Source of the DNA: Periplaneta americana
Lineage: Eukaryota; Arthropoda; Insecta; Blattodea; Blattidae
Direction of reading: 5' to 3'
NCBI RefSeq assembly: GCF_040183065.1
Contig: NC_091122.1
Span: forward strand, 160,492,955-160,556,954
Length of the DNA: 64,000 nucleotides
Part shown: one piece after another, positions 3,500 through 45,159 of the stretch
Layout: every line of letters starts with the position of its first letter
How positions within the stretch are numbered: the stretch's first letter is position 1
Notes under the pieces: generated by a model
Databases searched by the model: none
Told to the model about the DNA's origin: nothing
The model's input: only the letters and a program-made list of their open reading frames with translations
Program-made: the position numbers and the translations under genes

Positions 3500-5375
3500 G
3501 TGAAAATGAGATTTTTATATATTCTGAAAGCGGAAACAATTCTCTACAATCTGGTAAAACGGTTAAAGTCAAGTAAGACTCCTGACTGGATCTATAGAGC
3601 GTTACCAAAAAATGTCCTAAGTTTGTACTTTTTGAATCGAGCACACACAGAATAAAGAACTTAAGTATATTTAATACTTTATTCCTTACAAACCATCACA
3701 TGTTTACTTTCCATGCTTCCCTATTAAAAAGGTCTAACTTGTATTTTAGCTATTTTATCACATACTGATGGCCTTTCCTTTTAAAACTTAAAGCACCAGG
3801 TAAACAGTCCTATAATTTGTTTAAGATCTATTTTGCATTCCTAATAATTTACATTTCTCATTTATGTCGTTATGAAAAAGGTCTTATGTTTAAATAGTCT
3901 CTTCTACTCAGTTTCAATTCTAGTCTTAAAAGGGCTTAAGTGCGGCTATTTTTGGAAATAATCAAGAAAATTGTTAAATGAGCAACATAACCTATTTTAG
4001 AAGAAATATAAACAAATAATACCCAGGAAAAACCTCTTAAATAAAAAAAACTCTATAATTGACACCAATTTCAATCTTTCTACTGCTCTCCTGAAAAGTA
4101 TAAAATTTTTACTTAACTTTTTCCTCCCGGCCACAGTAAAATTTACGAATTCCCGGATGAAAATACTCGTAGATAATGAATACGAACAAAATCCGTCTAA
4201 TAGTTTAACAGAAATCGTTTGGCAGAATCATACACAGACAGATAGAAAGACAGAGACAGATAGACGATAAGCCCAGAACCAGTTTTCCTGCATAACGAAT
4301 GCTGAAAATTTGTATTGCTATGAAACTGTTGAACTGGAAATTCTGTAGCACCAGAACGTTTCCTCTTTAGGCTGTATTTTGCATGACAAATTATAGACGT
4401 TATAAGTAGGATTCACCATTAGATCTATCAGCTTTGCAGCCTAAGAGAGTTCTAGATGATGAACAGATTTCGAGGTATTGGACATCAACCAGTTGATTCA
4501 AATGTGCAGTAATAGATTAAACTCACTGTTTTGTGCGCATGGATTCACGGATCTAGTGCATTCCTATAGCATCTTTTATGTCAGCTACAGTCTTCCTTCT
4601 GTGTCAGTACGTACGTGTTCGAATGCAGCTCAGCGGGCGGTTATTTCTGTGGCTTTCAGTACGGAGTTCCATAAATTGTGTCGTAGCTAAAAGTGGAAAA
4701 ATCTTCAGATATTCAAAACGCGGTAAGTTTTATTAAGTTGTTCTTCTTCAGAGGTAAAATCCTTACTTTCACGTCAAGCTTGGACAAGTGATTAACAAAA
4801 CAAAAAAGAAGTAGGGCCGTAATTACTTTCCATTAGTCGTTATTGTCCTACATAACCTTCAAAGCTTATTAGTAATGAAGTGGTTTGTTTGTTTATTTTC
4901 AATGCCATTCCGGACGATAAATAATGAAATTATTTTACTTTTCTCCACTGATCTCTAATTATATCCATTTACAATTTGTGTAACCAATATTCATAGATCA
5001 CCGTGTATTGTTACAGGTAGGAAACTTTGTACTGAAATGTTCACACTCTTTTCTTTCGTCGGAAATCATAATCTTTGTCGTGCGTGGTGCTATCAGGAGT
5101 TGATATCGGAGTAATAGTGGGCTAAACTAACGCCGACGGAGTTCCCTTCGTACTCCTCTTAAATACACCTTGCATATACGAATCTATCACAAGTTACGCT
5201 TGGTTACTTTAAACTTTTGTTATACCTTACATGTACGATCAACTGCATCTTCACAAAAAATTTCCTATAAATTCAACGATTTTCACTTCTGAAATCATCG
5301 GAACTACATCAGCGGTAGTTTCACCTAATAGCGGTTATAACTTAAATGTTGTCTTCATTCGCCTCTTTTCTTGTA
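3500..5375. other. No gene recognised; contains a short dispersed repeat near 4.15-4.32 kb
   Basis: No reading frame here has family motifs or splice structure I can support. Around 4,150-4,320 a stretch ('gaacaaaatccg' ... 'ataagcccaga') resembles sequence at 7,500-7,640 and 46,010-46,090, so it is an unclassified interspersed repeat. Confidence 0.4.
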
Positions 5376-21511: not shown

Positions 21512-22248
21512 TACTTACTTACTTACTTACAAATGGCTTTTAAGGAACCCGAAGGTTCACTGCCGCCCTCACATAAGCCCGCCATCGGTCCCTATCCTGT
21601 GCAAGATAAATCCAGTCTCTATCATCATATCCCACCTCCCTCAAATCCATTTTAATATTATCCTCCCATCTACGTCTCGGCCTCCCTAACGGTCTTTTTC
21701 CCTCCGGTCTCCCAACTAACAATCTATATGCATTTCTGGATTCGCCCATACGTGCTACATGCCCTGCCCATCTCAAACGTCTGGATTTAATGTTCCTAAT
21801 TATGTCAGGTGAAGAATACAATGCGTGCAGTTCTGCGTTGTGTAACTTTCTCCATTCTCCTGTAACTTCATCCCGCTTAGCCTCAAATATTTTCCTAAGC
21901 ACCTTATTCTCAAACACTCTTATCCTATGTTCCTCTCTCAGAGTGAGAGTCCAAGTTTCACAACCATACAGAACAACCGGTAATATAACTGTTTTATAAA
22001 TTCTAACTTTGAGATTTTTTGACAACAGACTGGATGATAAAAGCTTCTCAACCGAATAATAACACGCATTTCCCATATTTATTCTGCGTTTAATTTCCTC
22101 CCGAGTATCATTTATATTTCTTACTGTTGCTCCAAGATATTTGAATTTTTCCAACTCTTCGAAGGATAAATCTCCAATTTTTATATTTCCATTTCGTACA
22201 ATATTCTGGTCACGAGACATAATCATATACATTGTGTTTTCGGGATTA
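21512..22248 (-). mobile_element. Non-LTR retrotransposon 3' fragment (TAAG-tailed family), 13-bp target duplication
   Basis: The minus-strand 230-residue frame 21,540-22,232 covers FEELEKFKYLGATVRNIND through VVLYGCETWTLTLREEHRIR to the C-terminal LRVP. The tail is (TAAG)n. ACTTAACATTACT flanks both sides (21,499-21,511 and 22,249-22,261). It is one of the least damaged copies of the polymerase C-terminus in the window but lacks the catalytic YADD region. Confidence 0.9.
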
Positions 22249-24895: not shown

Positions 24896-25492
24896 CCTGA
24901 TAATAGATATAGCGTACATATTAGCTAGAACCTCAATCAGAGGTAAAGAACTGATAGGCCTATAATGGTTTAATTTTTTTTTTTGTTTTATTGTCAAGTT
25001 TACTCCATTTTACAGTATTTTAAATTTGCAGTTTCCACGCATCGGCCTAGTTTTAACTTCTTATTTTACTTATACGGTAAGTAATTTACATGCACTTGCA
25101 GTTAATATGACGAAGGTGCGAACAAATGAACACGTACAATTTCATTGGTATAATTTCAGTGCAAAACGAAGAATTGTACGTTTATTTATTTCCAACTAGC
25201 CGTACCCGTGTGCTCCGCTGCACCCGTTAGAAATAAATATAAAGTAATTACATAATTAAAATAGGACATTTGATCCAGGGAACATTCGGGTTTGATAGAA
25301 GGATAAATCGTTTAATATGTTACTTAATTTAAATTGCATCCAAATAATTAAAATGCGATCATTTTGGTCCAGAGACCACTCATTGGTGCAATGACAATTC
25401 CTTTAACACGTTTCTAATTTTTATTACATGCAACCATAGTTTAATGGACAATGTCATCATTTAGATTTAATATGTATACTTTATTTTACTTG

Positions 25493-26247
25493 CAAATCAA
25501 GATTTCAGGTATAACTCCCTGTAAAGTTGATTTGAATAATTTCGAGGGAAAAATTGTTCCGGAGCCGGGTATCGAACCCTGTTTAACGTACCAACGCTCT
25601 ACCACTGAGCTACTCGGGAACTCTAACCGACACCGATCCAATTTTTCCCTCTATATCCACAGACCTCAAAGTGGGCTGACAACCGTCAAGCAACCAACTT
25701 CGAGTGCACACTAACTCCGTGTGACTTAAATTGTGGCTTTCTGTTAACGAACAGTGACGTGTATTATGCAAATCAAGATTTCAGGTATAACTCCCTGTAA
25801 AGTTGATTTGAATAATTTCGAGGGAAAAATTGTTCCGGAGCCGGGTATCGAACCCTGAGCTACTCGGGAACTCTAACCGACACCGATCCAATTTTCGGGT
25901 TCGATACCCGGGTTCGATACCCGGCTCCGGAACAATTTTTCCCTCGAAATTATTCAAATCAACTTTACAGGGAGTTATACCTGAAAATCTTGATTTGCAT
26001 AATACACGTCACTGTTCGTTAACAGAAAGCCACAATTTAAGTCACACGGAGTTAGTGTGCACTCGAAGTTGGTTGCTTGACGGTTGTCAGCCCACTTTGA
26101 GGTCTGTGGATATAGAGGGAAAAATTGGATCGGTGTCGGTTAGAGTTCCCGAGTAGCTCAGTGGTAGAGCGTTGGTACGTTAAACCAAAGGTCCCGGGTT
26201 CGATACCCGGCTCCGGAACAATTTTTCCCTCGAAATTATTCAAATTA
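25493..26247. mobile_element. Foldback element with tRNA-like ends, 13-bp target duplication
   Basis: Flanked by identical TTTATTTTACTTG (25,480-25,492 and 26,248-26,260). The left side holds one full unit and one partial unit in tandem (period about 276 bp, starts 25,493 and 25,769). The right side (about 25,897-26,247) is the same unit inverted. In the orientation that reads toward the right end, each unit is a spacer ('tgtgacttaaattgtg' reversed, 'gatcggtgtcggtt'), then a tRNA-like module, then 'caatttttccctcgaaatta'. The tRNA-like part is therefore at the outer, 3' end of the unit, the reverse of an ordinary SINE. The 13-bp duplication suggests target-primed retroposition. Related to 39,923-40,421. 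Confidence 0.75.
26145..26219 (+). repeat. tRNA-like module, anticodon-loop GTT, not a canonical tRNA
   Basis: Box A (TAGCTCAGTGGTAGAGC) and box B (GGTTCGATACC) are well formed. A TTGGT/ACCAA stem closes a 7-base loop, acgttaa, whose central triplet is GTT (Asn). Position 33 is C where nearly all tRNAs have U, and one acceptor pair is C-C. The reversed copy at 25,557-25,621 lacks about 10 bases between the T and anticodon arms, and the partial copy near 25,850 lacks more. Confidence 0.6.
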
Positions 26248-26261
26248 TTTATTTTACTTGT

Positions 26262-39845: not shown

Positions 39846-39922
39846 AGAGCGTTAAATCTAATGAATGAATTGTTTAGTGCAAGTAAACCAATATTTGATG
39901 TTGATAAAACCAATGTAATAAA

Positions 39923-40421
39923 TGTTATTTTATATGTTATTTTAATGTACCGAAGTACATATGATATTTCCATGCAGATATTCTGCGTCATCATACGATG
40001 AAAGAGCAATGGAACGGAGAAAAATTCTCTCCGGCGCCGGGATTTGAACCCGGGTTTTCAGCTCTACGTGCTGATGCTTTATCCACTAAGCCACACATAT
40101 ATGATGTGCGTAAAATCACTTCGTGATTTAAGACGGCGCTCATTCCGTCGGATCCCGGCCAACTAGTCACTCATATCGAGTGCACCTCAGCACAGGTATG
40201 GACTTCGGTCCTGCGTTCATAGACATCTATGACGTAGTGCAGAGGGCGGCCACTAGAGGGAACCCAAGAGTTGGAGCTTAATCTGAGACGATTCTAACCG
40301 GCGTCGGAGTTGTATCCGGTGTGGCTTAGTGGATAAAGCATCAGCACGTAGAGCTGAAAACCCGGGTTCAAATCCCGGCGCCGGAGAGAATTTTTCTCCG
40401 TTCCATTGCTCTTTCATCGTA
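39923..40421. mobile_element. Foldback element with tRNA-like arms, 12-bp flanking direct repeats
   Basis: Flanked by CAATGTAATAAA on both sides (39,911-39,922 and 40,422-40,433). Arms at 39,994-40,103 and 40,317-40,421 are inverted copies about 105 bp long. Each carries a tRNA-like module followed by 'gagagaatttttctccg' and 'ttccattgctctttcatcgt' toward the outer end. The 210-bp centre shares short words with the foldback at 25,493-26,247 ('cgagtgcac', 'accggcgtcgg'/'atcggtgtcgg'). An extra 70 bp precedes the left arm. It inserted next to the 5' edge of a LINE fragment. Confidence 0.7.
40315..40385 (+). repeat. tRNA-like module, anticodon-loop GTA, not a canonical tRNA
   Basis: Acceptor TCCGGTG/CGCCGGA pairs fully (one T-G). 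Box A TGGCTTAGTGG and box B GGTTCAAATCC are good. Stem TCAGC/GCTGA closes loop acgtaga, central triplet GTA (Tyr), but base 33 is C, as in the module at 26,145. The reversed arm copy (about 40,030-40,103) has lost acceptor pairing. Confidence 0.6.
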
Positions 40422-40433
40422 CAATGTAATAAA

Positions 40434-43710: not shown

Positions 43711-44659
43711 GCGAGAGACTGAGAATATAATCTTACATCTATTTCTTACAGAATTCCGTCCTGTTGAACTTTGTATTACAAATGAACAAACCTCAAGCCT
43801 TTAGTTTAAATAATTTTATGCTCGACCATGCCGAAATGTAGTAATTATACACCTGGTAGCAGTCCTTTAATGCATGTCATTAAAGTACACCTATTCATTA
43901 AAGTTCAGGTTTTCGATTATTCTCGGATATACAATCGAAAGACAGCGAGGGAAACGTCACGGAGGCTGGAAATCCAATACTGTCGCAGAAGGTTATGTTC
44001 TGTTACTATAACAATTAGCGTTAATTGTAAATAATATTCAAATAAATTCAATTTGTCATCTCGTGTTTCAATTCTAAATTAATTTTCAGGTTATATCAAA
44101 ATTAGTTCATGTTATTCTCTAGATTATATCAAGGTCAATGACATTATTGTTACTCGGAAAAAATCAATACTTTCGCGTCTGCGCACATCTCACAATTTAC
44201 GAGCTATGCACAAGGTCACTTCCGATCTTCAGTCAGATACGAATAAAGTGAATACTTCTGAATAATTTCGAGTTAGAAATATGGTCGAGCATAAAAAGTC
44301 GCTTGCGCTCGTTTCATAAACAAACATACTCGCGTCTTAATTACTATCATTATAGGCTCGTTGCATAATGCACTATTAAACAATTTTAATTCTTCAACAC
44401 TGGCACATTGTTTGCCATTTAAATATACTTCTCTTAATCGCAGCCATATTTATTGTTTGTTTTTATCTGAATGTTTTTTATTCAATAATATGCTTGACGC
44501 CATGATTTATAACCATTTTTAAAATGAGCAAGCAAAGTTAAATTTTACATGTGTTTTATATGTGTGTTTTTATTATTGTATCTTTTCACCTATGTTCAAT
44601 TGTATTTGTCAGCAAATCACATCACCTGAAGATGACTTACTTCAAAAGTCTAAAATATA

Positions 44660-44985
44660 GGAGTGGATCAGGACAGCACGTTTGCACATCTCCTTTTTAT
44701 GTTAGGTTAGGTTCTTTTCAAACTGAAATGACGAGTGAAACGTACAGTTAAAATTACCCTAACCTAACCTAACCTAACCTAACCTAACCTAACTTAACCT
44801 AACCTAACCTAACCTAACCTAACCTAACCTAACCTAACCTATCCTCACCTAACTTAACATAAAAAGGTTAGGTTAGGTTAGGTTAGAGTAATTTTAACTG
44901 TACGCTTCACTCGTCATTTCAGTTTGAAAAGAACCTAACCTAACATAAAAAGGAGATGTGTAAACGTGCTGTCCTGATCCACTCC
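44660..44985. mobile_element. Foldback with 98-bp arms enclosing telomere-type repeats
   Basis: Arms 44,660-44,757 and 44,888-44,985 are inverted with only a few mismatches ('ggagtggatcaggacagcac' against its reverse). The arms themselves contain short TTAGG runs. The loop is the (CCTAA)n array. Confidence 0.8.
44757..44886. repeat. Interstitial insect telomere-type repeat (CCTAA)n, then (TTAGG)n
   Basis: About 18 tandem CCTAA units run from 44,757 to about 44,850. After a 15-bp junction four or so TTAGG units follow in the opposite orientation (to 44,886). TTAGG is the ancestral insect telomere unit. The position between inverted arms shows it is interstitial and not a chromosome end. Confidence 0.9.
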
Positions 44986-45159
44986 TTAAAATATTCGTGA
45001 TGCATAATTTAATATATTGTAATTTGATGTAACAGAATTCATTTCTGCTTCCATACCTTGATAAGTGATAGACTGAAAATTAAACAAACTATTTTGATAT
45101 TATAATTCACGAACTTATCTGAATTTCTAATATGACTTTTAAATTTATTATCATCTTCA

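What the first reader, a model, noticed from the sequence alone, without database searches (positions are those of the whole stretch)
25493..26247. Foldback retroelement with tRNA-like modules at the 3' end of its unit, flanked by a 13-bp target duplication
Seen: identical 13-mers TTTATTTTACTTG flank a 755-bp segment made of a full unit, a partial tandem unit and an inverted unit (period about 276 bp). Each unit ends with a tRNA-like module followed by 'caatttttccctcg'. Known: foldback DNA transposons do not make 12-14 bp variable target duplications, and ordinary SINEs have the tRNA at the 5' end. Inference: an RNA-templated element with a 3' tRNA-like end that inserts as tandem/inverted multimers. 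Penelope-like elements also insert as partly tandem, partly inverted copies, so a non-autonomous relative of those is one hypothesis. With 39,923-40,421 this is my best candidate for an undescribed system.
Basis: partly seen in the sequence, partly recalled or inferred. Interest (0 to 1): 0.85.

Follow-up and report, generated by a model that had tools for sequence, protein, structure and literature searches.

The report
tRNA-bearing parasites of Penelope retrotransposons
A short non-coding repeat carrying a tRNA-like piece has spread through a large animal genome in tandem and mirror-image blocks, and its ends are arranged as in Penelope-type retrotransposons of the same genome, so it is probably a parasite of them.

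Summary
Window 25493-26247 is flanked by TTTATTTTACTTG, and a related repeat elsewhere shows the empty site with that 13-mer once. I mapped 41 distinct U1 and 21 U2 loci. In 41 of 44 head-to-head copies with both outer ends in view, one end is at fixed site A and the other at fixed site B, 43-63 nt apart around a predicted hairpin; three have one unusual end; none is A/A or B/B. Target duplications are mostly 11-15 bp, and arm lengths vary independently.

Two resident Penelope-like (PLE) families show the same rule in 9 of 9 head-to-head copies resolved. The published PLE mechanism (both strands cut and extended, two adjacent RNA start sites bounding a "tail") explains the ends. I conclude: tRNA-headed, non-autonomous, PLE-mobilised retroposons. 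U1's tail weakly resembles the PLE tails; U2's does not significantly. Partner and transcription are unproven.

The parts
25480..25492 (+). left target-site duplication TTTATTTTACTTG
   Evidence: empty site with one copy in L012
25493..25895 (-). antisense arm (one unit plus a partial second unit); read as cDNA that started at site B
25493..25534 (-). tail stretch CAAATCAA...TTGATTTG (predicted hairpin); its outer edge is the B end
25557..25619 (-). damaged tRNA-like module of the antisense arm (about 10-bp deletion)
   Evidence: Rfam RF00005 32.0 bits
25896..25924 (+). centre of the head-to-head structure, with a 13-bp direct duplication CGGGTTCGATACC
   Evidence: TRF; centre print
25907..26245 (+). 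sense arm; its bottom strand is read as cDNA that started at site A
25955..25997 (+). internal copy of the tail stretch between sites A and B
26147..26218 (+). intact tRNA-like module (ARAGORN Asn GTT, but C at position 33), with A-box and B-box like sequences (by eye)
26222..26226 (+). TTTTT just after the tRNA-like module (Pol III terminator-like)
   Evidence: role inferred
26232..26240 (+). GAAATTATT, the A end; 26241-26247 is junction sequence
26248..26260 (+). right target-site duplication
39911..39922 (+). left target-site duplication CAATGTAATAAA of the U2 copy
39923..40421 (+). U2 copy: antisense arm from site B (166 bp) head-to-head with sense arm ending at site A (325 bp); tRNA-like modules at 40034-40096 (-) and 40315-40386 (+)
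40422..40433 (+). right target-site duplication of the U2 copy

Best explanation
Each copy is one insertion of a non-autonomous retroposon by a Penelope-type reverse transcriptase/endonuclease. The enzyme nicks both target strands, usually 11-15 bp apart. Each freed 3' end primes reverse transcription on template RNA: one starts at the 5' side (A) and the other at the 3' side (B) of a hairpin downstream of the tRNA-like module. Both cDNAs are antisense and run towards or through the tRNA-like module, often through several tandem units. They are then joined where their 3' ends meet, mostly at microhomology. That gives a head-to-head foldback with one A end, one B end and a target duplication. 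Shown from sequence: the ends, duplications, empty sites, independent arm lengths, centres, and the same rule in resident PLEs. Inferred: that a resident PLE supplies the enzyme, that the tRNA-like module drives or processes the RNA, and that read-through, tandem or circular templates give the tandem units.
For: End rule: 41 of 44 head-to-head copies with both outer ends in view are A/B (24 U1, 17 U2); none is A/A or B/B; L028, L038 and L096 each have one unusual end. Exact duplications of 11-15 bp in 22 of those 24 U1 copies and 12-14 bp in 14 of those 17 U2 copies. Empty sites for the window copy, L022 and L045. Either arm can be the longer. Of 47 distinct centres, 27 overlap by 2-9 bp (57%) against 53 of 240 (22%) in simulated random joins put through the same script. 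Resident PLEs: 108 GIY-YIG matches over cut-off; one open frame has RVT_1 and GIY-YIG. In 9 of 9 head-to-head PLE insertions whose ends I resolved (six of one family, three of another), one end has the 42-43-nt tail and the other lacks it. U1's best-matching windows to both PLE tails, over all windows on both strands, are those at its own A-B stretch. Literature: a purified Anolis PLE cuts and extends both strands and starts at two adjacent RNA sites bounding the tail.
Against: No extended similarity of U1 or U2 to 30 PLE loci of about 3.2 kb, only one 22-bp match. The tail resemblance is weak: U1 against PLE2 p=0.013, against PLE1 p=0.09; U2 p=0.16 and 0.37 (dinucleotide shuffles). The hammerhead core pattern found in PLE loci is absent from U1 and only partial in U2; Rfam found none in U1 or U2, but it also missed the PLE motif, so that test says little. 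The tRNA-like region is not clearly more conserved than the rest: U1 somewhat more variable, U2 somewhat less. Copies outside the pattern: L028, L038, L096 and 10 single-arm copies (nine U1, one U2). Duplications were short, ambiguous or not found by exact match in L025, L032, L037 and L039; L099 sits in a microsatellite. Most U1 loci were picked from a search with the inverted window copy, which favours inverted copies. No RNA data.
Confidence: 0.85

Rival explanations
1. A foldback or MITE-like DNA transposon that carries a tRNA-like module and moves by cut-and-paste through terminal inverted repeats.
For: Long inverted arms.
Against: In 41 of 44 head-to-head copies the two outer ends are different unit positions, A and B. 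Target duplications vary from 11 to 15 bp. Single-arm copies exist. Centres are variable, with microhomology.
Confidence: 0.03
2. Ordinary tRNA-SINE mobilised by a LINE, the inverted copies being accidental twin-priming products.
For: tRNA-like head, variable duplications; twin priming (recall) also gives head-to-head geometry. Some arms stop near the 5' end of the tRNA-like module.
Against: The second priming site is as fixed as the first in 41 of 44 head-to-head copies. Inverted copies are not rare: 9 of the 12 distinct loci among L089-L102, picked without regard to inversion. No A-rich or microsatellite tail seen by eye at A or B junctions. Resident PLEs show the same two-site rule.
Confidence: 0.07
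3. Snap-back: one cDNA is made from B, folds on its own 3' end at the T-arm hairpin and copies itself until it meets the tail hairpin at A.
For: Hotspot of inner ends at U1 43-52 (T-arm), 14 of the 62 ends I listed. Some centres are near-palindromic (L011, L023). Self-priming was proposed for rotifer PLEs (PMC3846280 passages).
Against: The A arm is often much longer than the B arm (L017 444 against 67, L018 684 against 55, L024 968 against 82), so it cannot be a copy of it. Most centres are not palindromic.
Confidence: 0.08
4. Metazoan retrozyme: a ribozyme-circularised small RNA element.
For: Unit size (286 and 383 bp), tandem units and duplications larger than 4 bp fit the description in PMC7229834 (passages); U1 is strongly self-paired. 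U2 has a TGATGA...GGAAA stretch.
Against: The core pattern CTGANGA...GAAA is absent from both units on both strands; U2's stretch lacks its first C. No Rfam hammerhead up to E=5, a test that also missed the PLE motif.
Confidence: 0.08

Closest known systems
Penelope-like elements (PLEs) with GIY-YIG endonuclease, and their pLTR/tail structure
   Same: Head-to-head inverted copies, tandem units, duplications of about 8-15 bp, and a tail-length stretch present at one end only. Matches PMC11167929 and PMC3846280 and resident PLEs.
   Different: U1 and U2 are 286- and 383-bp non-coding units with a tRNA-like module; no RT, no endonuclease, no full hammerhead core pattern.
Metazoan retrozymes (PMC7229834, passages)
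   Same: Small non-autonomous tandem-unit retroelements with duplications larger than 4 bp.
   Different: Retrozymes are defined by a type I hammerhead; the core pattern is absent here. A tRNA-like module stands in each unit.
tRNA-derived SINEs
   Same: tRNA-like head with A- and B-box like sequences; possible transcription from the 5' end of the module.
   Different: No A-rich tail seen; two fixed start sites; many inverted multimers.
TRIMp3 / Helenus (PMC10886601, abstract read)
   Same: A non-autonomous retroelement with a tRNA-like sequence that depends on a non-LINE partner.
   Different: Helenus depends on LTR retrotransposons, with a PBS, a PPT and 4-5 bp duplications.

Membership tests
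Insertion product of a Penelope-like RT/endonuclease | 'Tail' stretch (30-40 bp in print) at one end only of head-to-head copies | tested here: met
   41 of 44 head-to-head copies of U1 and U2 with both ends in view; L028, L038 and L096 depart. U2's A-B distance is longer, about 63 nt.
Insertion product of a Penelope-like RT/endonuclease | Same rule in autonomous PLEs of this genome | tested here: met
   9 of 9 head-to-head PLE insertions whose ends I resolved; inverted loci L052, L075, L076 and L080 were not resolved
Insertion product of a Penelope-like RT/endonuclease | Variable target duplications (8-10 bp in the rotifer passages read) | tested here: met
   Variable, 11-15 bp in most copies; paralogous empty sites; resident PLEs similar
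Autonomous Penelope-like element | ORF with telomerase-like RT and GIY-YIG | tested here: not met
   Units of 286 and 383 bp have no room for it; no open frame of 120 aa or more overlaps the window's copy
Penelope-like element or derivative | Hammerhead ribozyme in the terminal repeat | tested here: not met
   Core pattern present in PLE loci, absent from U1, partial in U2. Rfam negative but it missed the PLE motif too
Penelope-like element or derivative | Shared RT-start (tail) sequence with a resident PLE | tested here: inconclusive
   U1 best aligned at its own tail with both PLE tails, p 0.013 and 0.09; U2 not significant
Retrozyme | Self-cleaving hammerhead in each unit | tested here: not met
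   Core pattern CTGANGA...GAAA absent from both units; no Rfam match, no positive control for that
tRNA SINE | tRNA-like module with Pol III boxes | tested here: met
   Rfam 60.7 and 61.5 bits; boxes by eye
tRNA SINE | LINE-type 3' end | tested here: inconclusive
   No A-rich end seen by eye at A or B junctions; a LINE partner was not searched for
Foldback DNA transposon | Matching terminal inverted repeats and fixed-length duplications | tested here: not met
   Ends differ (A against B) in 41 of 44; duplications 11-15 bp

The most novel reading that the evidence does not exclude
A class of SINE that parasitises Penelope elements rather than LINEs, by joining a tRNA-like Pol III head to a PLE-type start-site hairpin. 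Penelope-type integration is obligate twin priming: the two target strands must use the two different start sites, one each, so that a full insertion is a head-to-head foldback. At least two families in this genome use it, and they may generate tandem tRNA-like satellite arrays as a by-product.
Probability: 0.6. Interest if true: 0.75.

Novelty: new variant of a known kind. Interest (0 to 1): 0.62.

Why it matters
How PLEs integrate is still open: rotifer work proposed self-priming, and the Anolis biochemistry saw two start sites but no strand difference. Short, young, non-coding copies (62 loci mapped here, several hundred unscored candidates) act as natural replicates. They indicate that the two start sites are used one per strand and that the arms are made independently. 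They also suggest a minimal RNA (tRNA-like head plus hairpin) for testing what a PLE enzyme recognises, and they are a source of tRNA-like repeats that could inflate tRNA gene counts.

Tried and rejected
Rejected: foldback DNA transposon (unequal ends, variable duplications); simple snap-back (arm lengths); retrozyme (no hammerhead core pattern); plain LINE-SINE (less likely, not excluded). Inheritance of one inverted master copy was considered because five U1 copies share a T-arm/acceptor centre (L009, L010, L022 with L014, L015 in the opposite order; L009's right end was not resolved). The four with known duplications have different ones, so a hotspot is likelier.

Led nowhere: similarity of U1 or U2 to 30 PLE loci; an upstream similarity of the two units, CGGYGTCGG, p=0.17 by shuffles; selection on the tRNA-like region; the Rfam hammerhead test, whose positive control on a PLE locus failed; a second query for U2 body copies, never answered. 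Paper searches for a non-autonomous or tRNA-bearing PLE listed none that I recognised as such from titles and abstract starts; only open-licence papers are held. Host identity: the repeat ORFs and genome size suggest a cockroach such as Periplaneta americana. This is recall, from no call.

Full report
Observation. The unit is 286 bp; 276 reflects a small deletion in the antisense tRNA-like module. The window's other tRNA hits, eight tRNA-Pro matches, look like ordinary tRNA-Pro genes to me (recall) and are not part of this.

Families and sampling. The window is C6:160492955-160556954 of a 3.23-Gb assembly. The U1 search returned 191 matches from 40 scored places of 730 candidates; the U2 search returned 195 from 40 of 747. 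I mapped 43 U1 loci (41 distinct, since L089, L090 and L092 are one insertion duplicated) and 21 U2 loci on their units. L009-L028 and L081-L088 were chosen by me from the listing, whose query is itself inverted. L089-L102 are 14 of the 40 hits of a 68-base query over the A-B stretch, which does not select for inversion: of their 12 distinct loci 9 are head-to-head and 3 single-arm. Mean minor-allele frequency, one vote per locus, is 1.3% for U1 and 1.9% for U2, so both families are young.

Outer ends. Of the 41 U1 loci, 24 are head-to-head with one end at A (93-99, GAAATTATT ending at 94) and one at B (136-146, TTGATTTGC ending at 138). One has B plus an end at 62 (L028), one has ends at 147 and 96 (L096, not counted as A/B), nine are single-arm (seven B, two A), and six are cut off or unresolved (L009, L019, L020, L023, L027, L086). 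Of the 21 U2 loci, 17 are A/B (about 103-111 and 164-176), one has A plus an end at 189 (L038), one is single-arm (L043) and two are unresolved (L042, L049). No A/A or B/B copy was seen. Exact target duplications are 11-15 bp in 22 of the 24 U1 A/B copies; L025 is ambiguous and L099 lies in a microsatellite. They are 12-14 bp in 14 of the 17 U2 A/B copies; L037 and L039 gave 7 and 8 bp, L032 none by exact match.

Empty sites. Joined flanks of the window copy align to L012 across the junction, with TTTATTTTACTTG once. Those of L022 and L045 align across the junction to window 3550-4056 and 21520-21834, with a base or so of difference in the duplicated word.

Arms and centres. Either arm may be longer, so neither is simply a copy of the other. 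Of 47 distinct centres, 28 overlap by 1-9 bp, 4 abut, 7 hold 1-16 bp of filler and 8 fall in imperfect tRNA palindromes. Overlaps of 2-9 bp occur in 27 of 47, against 53 of 240 simulated random joins put through the same script, so microhomology is enriched. Inner ends cluster at the T-arm in U1 (14 of 62, 2.2 expected) and near the 5' end of the tRNA-like module (U1 8 of 62, p=0.007; U2 7 of 37, p=0.0002). It fits some templates starting at the module, or reverse transcription stopping in it. Three U1 inner ends at 74, just 3' of the module (L083, L089, L093), hint at RNase Z processing.

RNA structure. The U1 monomer folds with z=-4.4 against shuffles. A and B lie at the two sides of its tail hairpin. 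In both units the 3' half of the tRNA-like module and the trailer can pair with the leader of the next module, which would compete with the cloverleaf. This is a prediction only.

Resident PLEs. A GIY-YIG search gave 108 matches over the cut-off, from 150 scored of 7669 candidates. One open frame holds RVT_1 and GIY-YIG. Copies of the main family are about 91-99% alike over the 3' region and carry a hammerhead-like motif by pattern; Rfam does not find it. They end at A' or, with a 43-nt tail, at B'. Six head-to-head insertions of this family (L053, L058/59, L064, L066, L068/69, L078) and three of a second family (L103/104, L105/106, L107/108) each have one tailed and one untailed end. Eight of the nine share a flank word of 10-16 bp, some of which run into the element's own end; for L105/106 the script's word is not at the junction, and by eye a 7-bp word fits there. 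Inverted loci L052, L075, L076 and L080 and other pairs were not resolved. The two tails share TCTGAAAAT and AAAATGAATTG. U1's tail has CTGAAAAT and TTGATTTGC in the same order. Over all U1 windows on both strands, the best scores with both PLE tails come from windows starting 4-10 nt inside its own A-B stretch (p=0.013 and 0.09 by shuffles of the tail). U2's best windows also overlap its tail but are not significant.

Literature. PMC11167929 (parts 1 and 2 of 4 read, plus passages): Anolis PLE protein cuts and extends both strands, starts at two adjacent internal RNA sites, and the stretch between them is the genomic tail. PMC3846280 (passages): rotifer Penelope copies with inverted pLTRs, a 31-bp tail on one of them, 8-10 bp duplications, sequences mobilised in trans between pLTRs, and a self-priming proposal. 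PMC7229834 (passages): metazoan retrozymes. PMC10886601 (abstract and outline): tRNA-bearing TRIMs. Other papers were seen only as search listings. Searches for a non-autonomous or tRNA-bearing PLE listed nothing that I recognised as one.

Mechanism. Two staggered nicks each prime an antisense cDNA, one from A and one from B, on tandem or separate template RNAs, and the cDNAs meet and join. This is like twin priming of LINE-1 (recall) made regular. It accounts for the foldback, the tandem units, the unequal ends, the duplications and the centres. Why the two strands take different sites is not explained by the published biochemistry, which saw no strand difference. An enzyme dimer placed astride one hairpin is my guess.

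Verdict. The insertion pattern is of a known kind. The elements (tRNA-headed, non-autonomous, in two families) are a new variant of it as far as these searches show.

Noticed in passing
window 34048-63529 (eight tRNA-Pro hits): Eight near-identical tRNA-Pro modules with unrelated or partly duplicated flanks, two of them in a repeat of about 480 bp; they look like an ordinary tRNA-Pro gene cluster.
   Followed up: partly
L094 and L045: A U1 copy and a U2 copy sit at the same site (TGGATTAATCT) in copies of the same dispersed coding repeat, which hints at a shared target preference.
   Followed up: no
L020 (C18:2742952 onward) and L019: Long tandem U1 arrays of many units, perhaps satellites seeded by the element; their far ends were not seen.
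   Followed up: no
L083, L089, L093: Three U1 arms begin at unit position 74, just after the tRNA-like module, about where RNase Z would cut.
   Followed up: partly
window 44659-44986: CCTAA array at 44758-44862 (insect telomere-type repeat, recall) with inverted copies of 122 bp at 44659-44780 and 44865-44986.
   Followed up: no
window 26147-26218 and 40315-40386: Both tRNA-like modules have ACGT in the anticodon loop with C instead of U at position 33, so neither looks like a working tRNA; they may share ancestry (by eye, alignment).
   Followed up: partly
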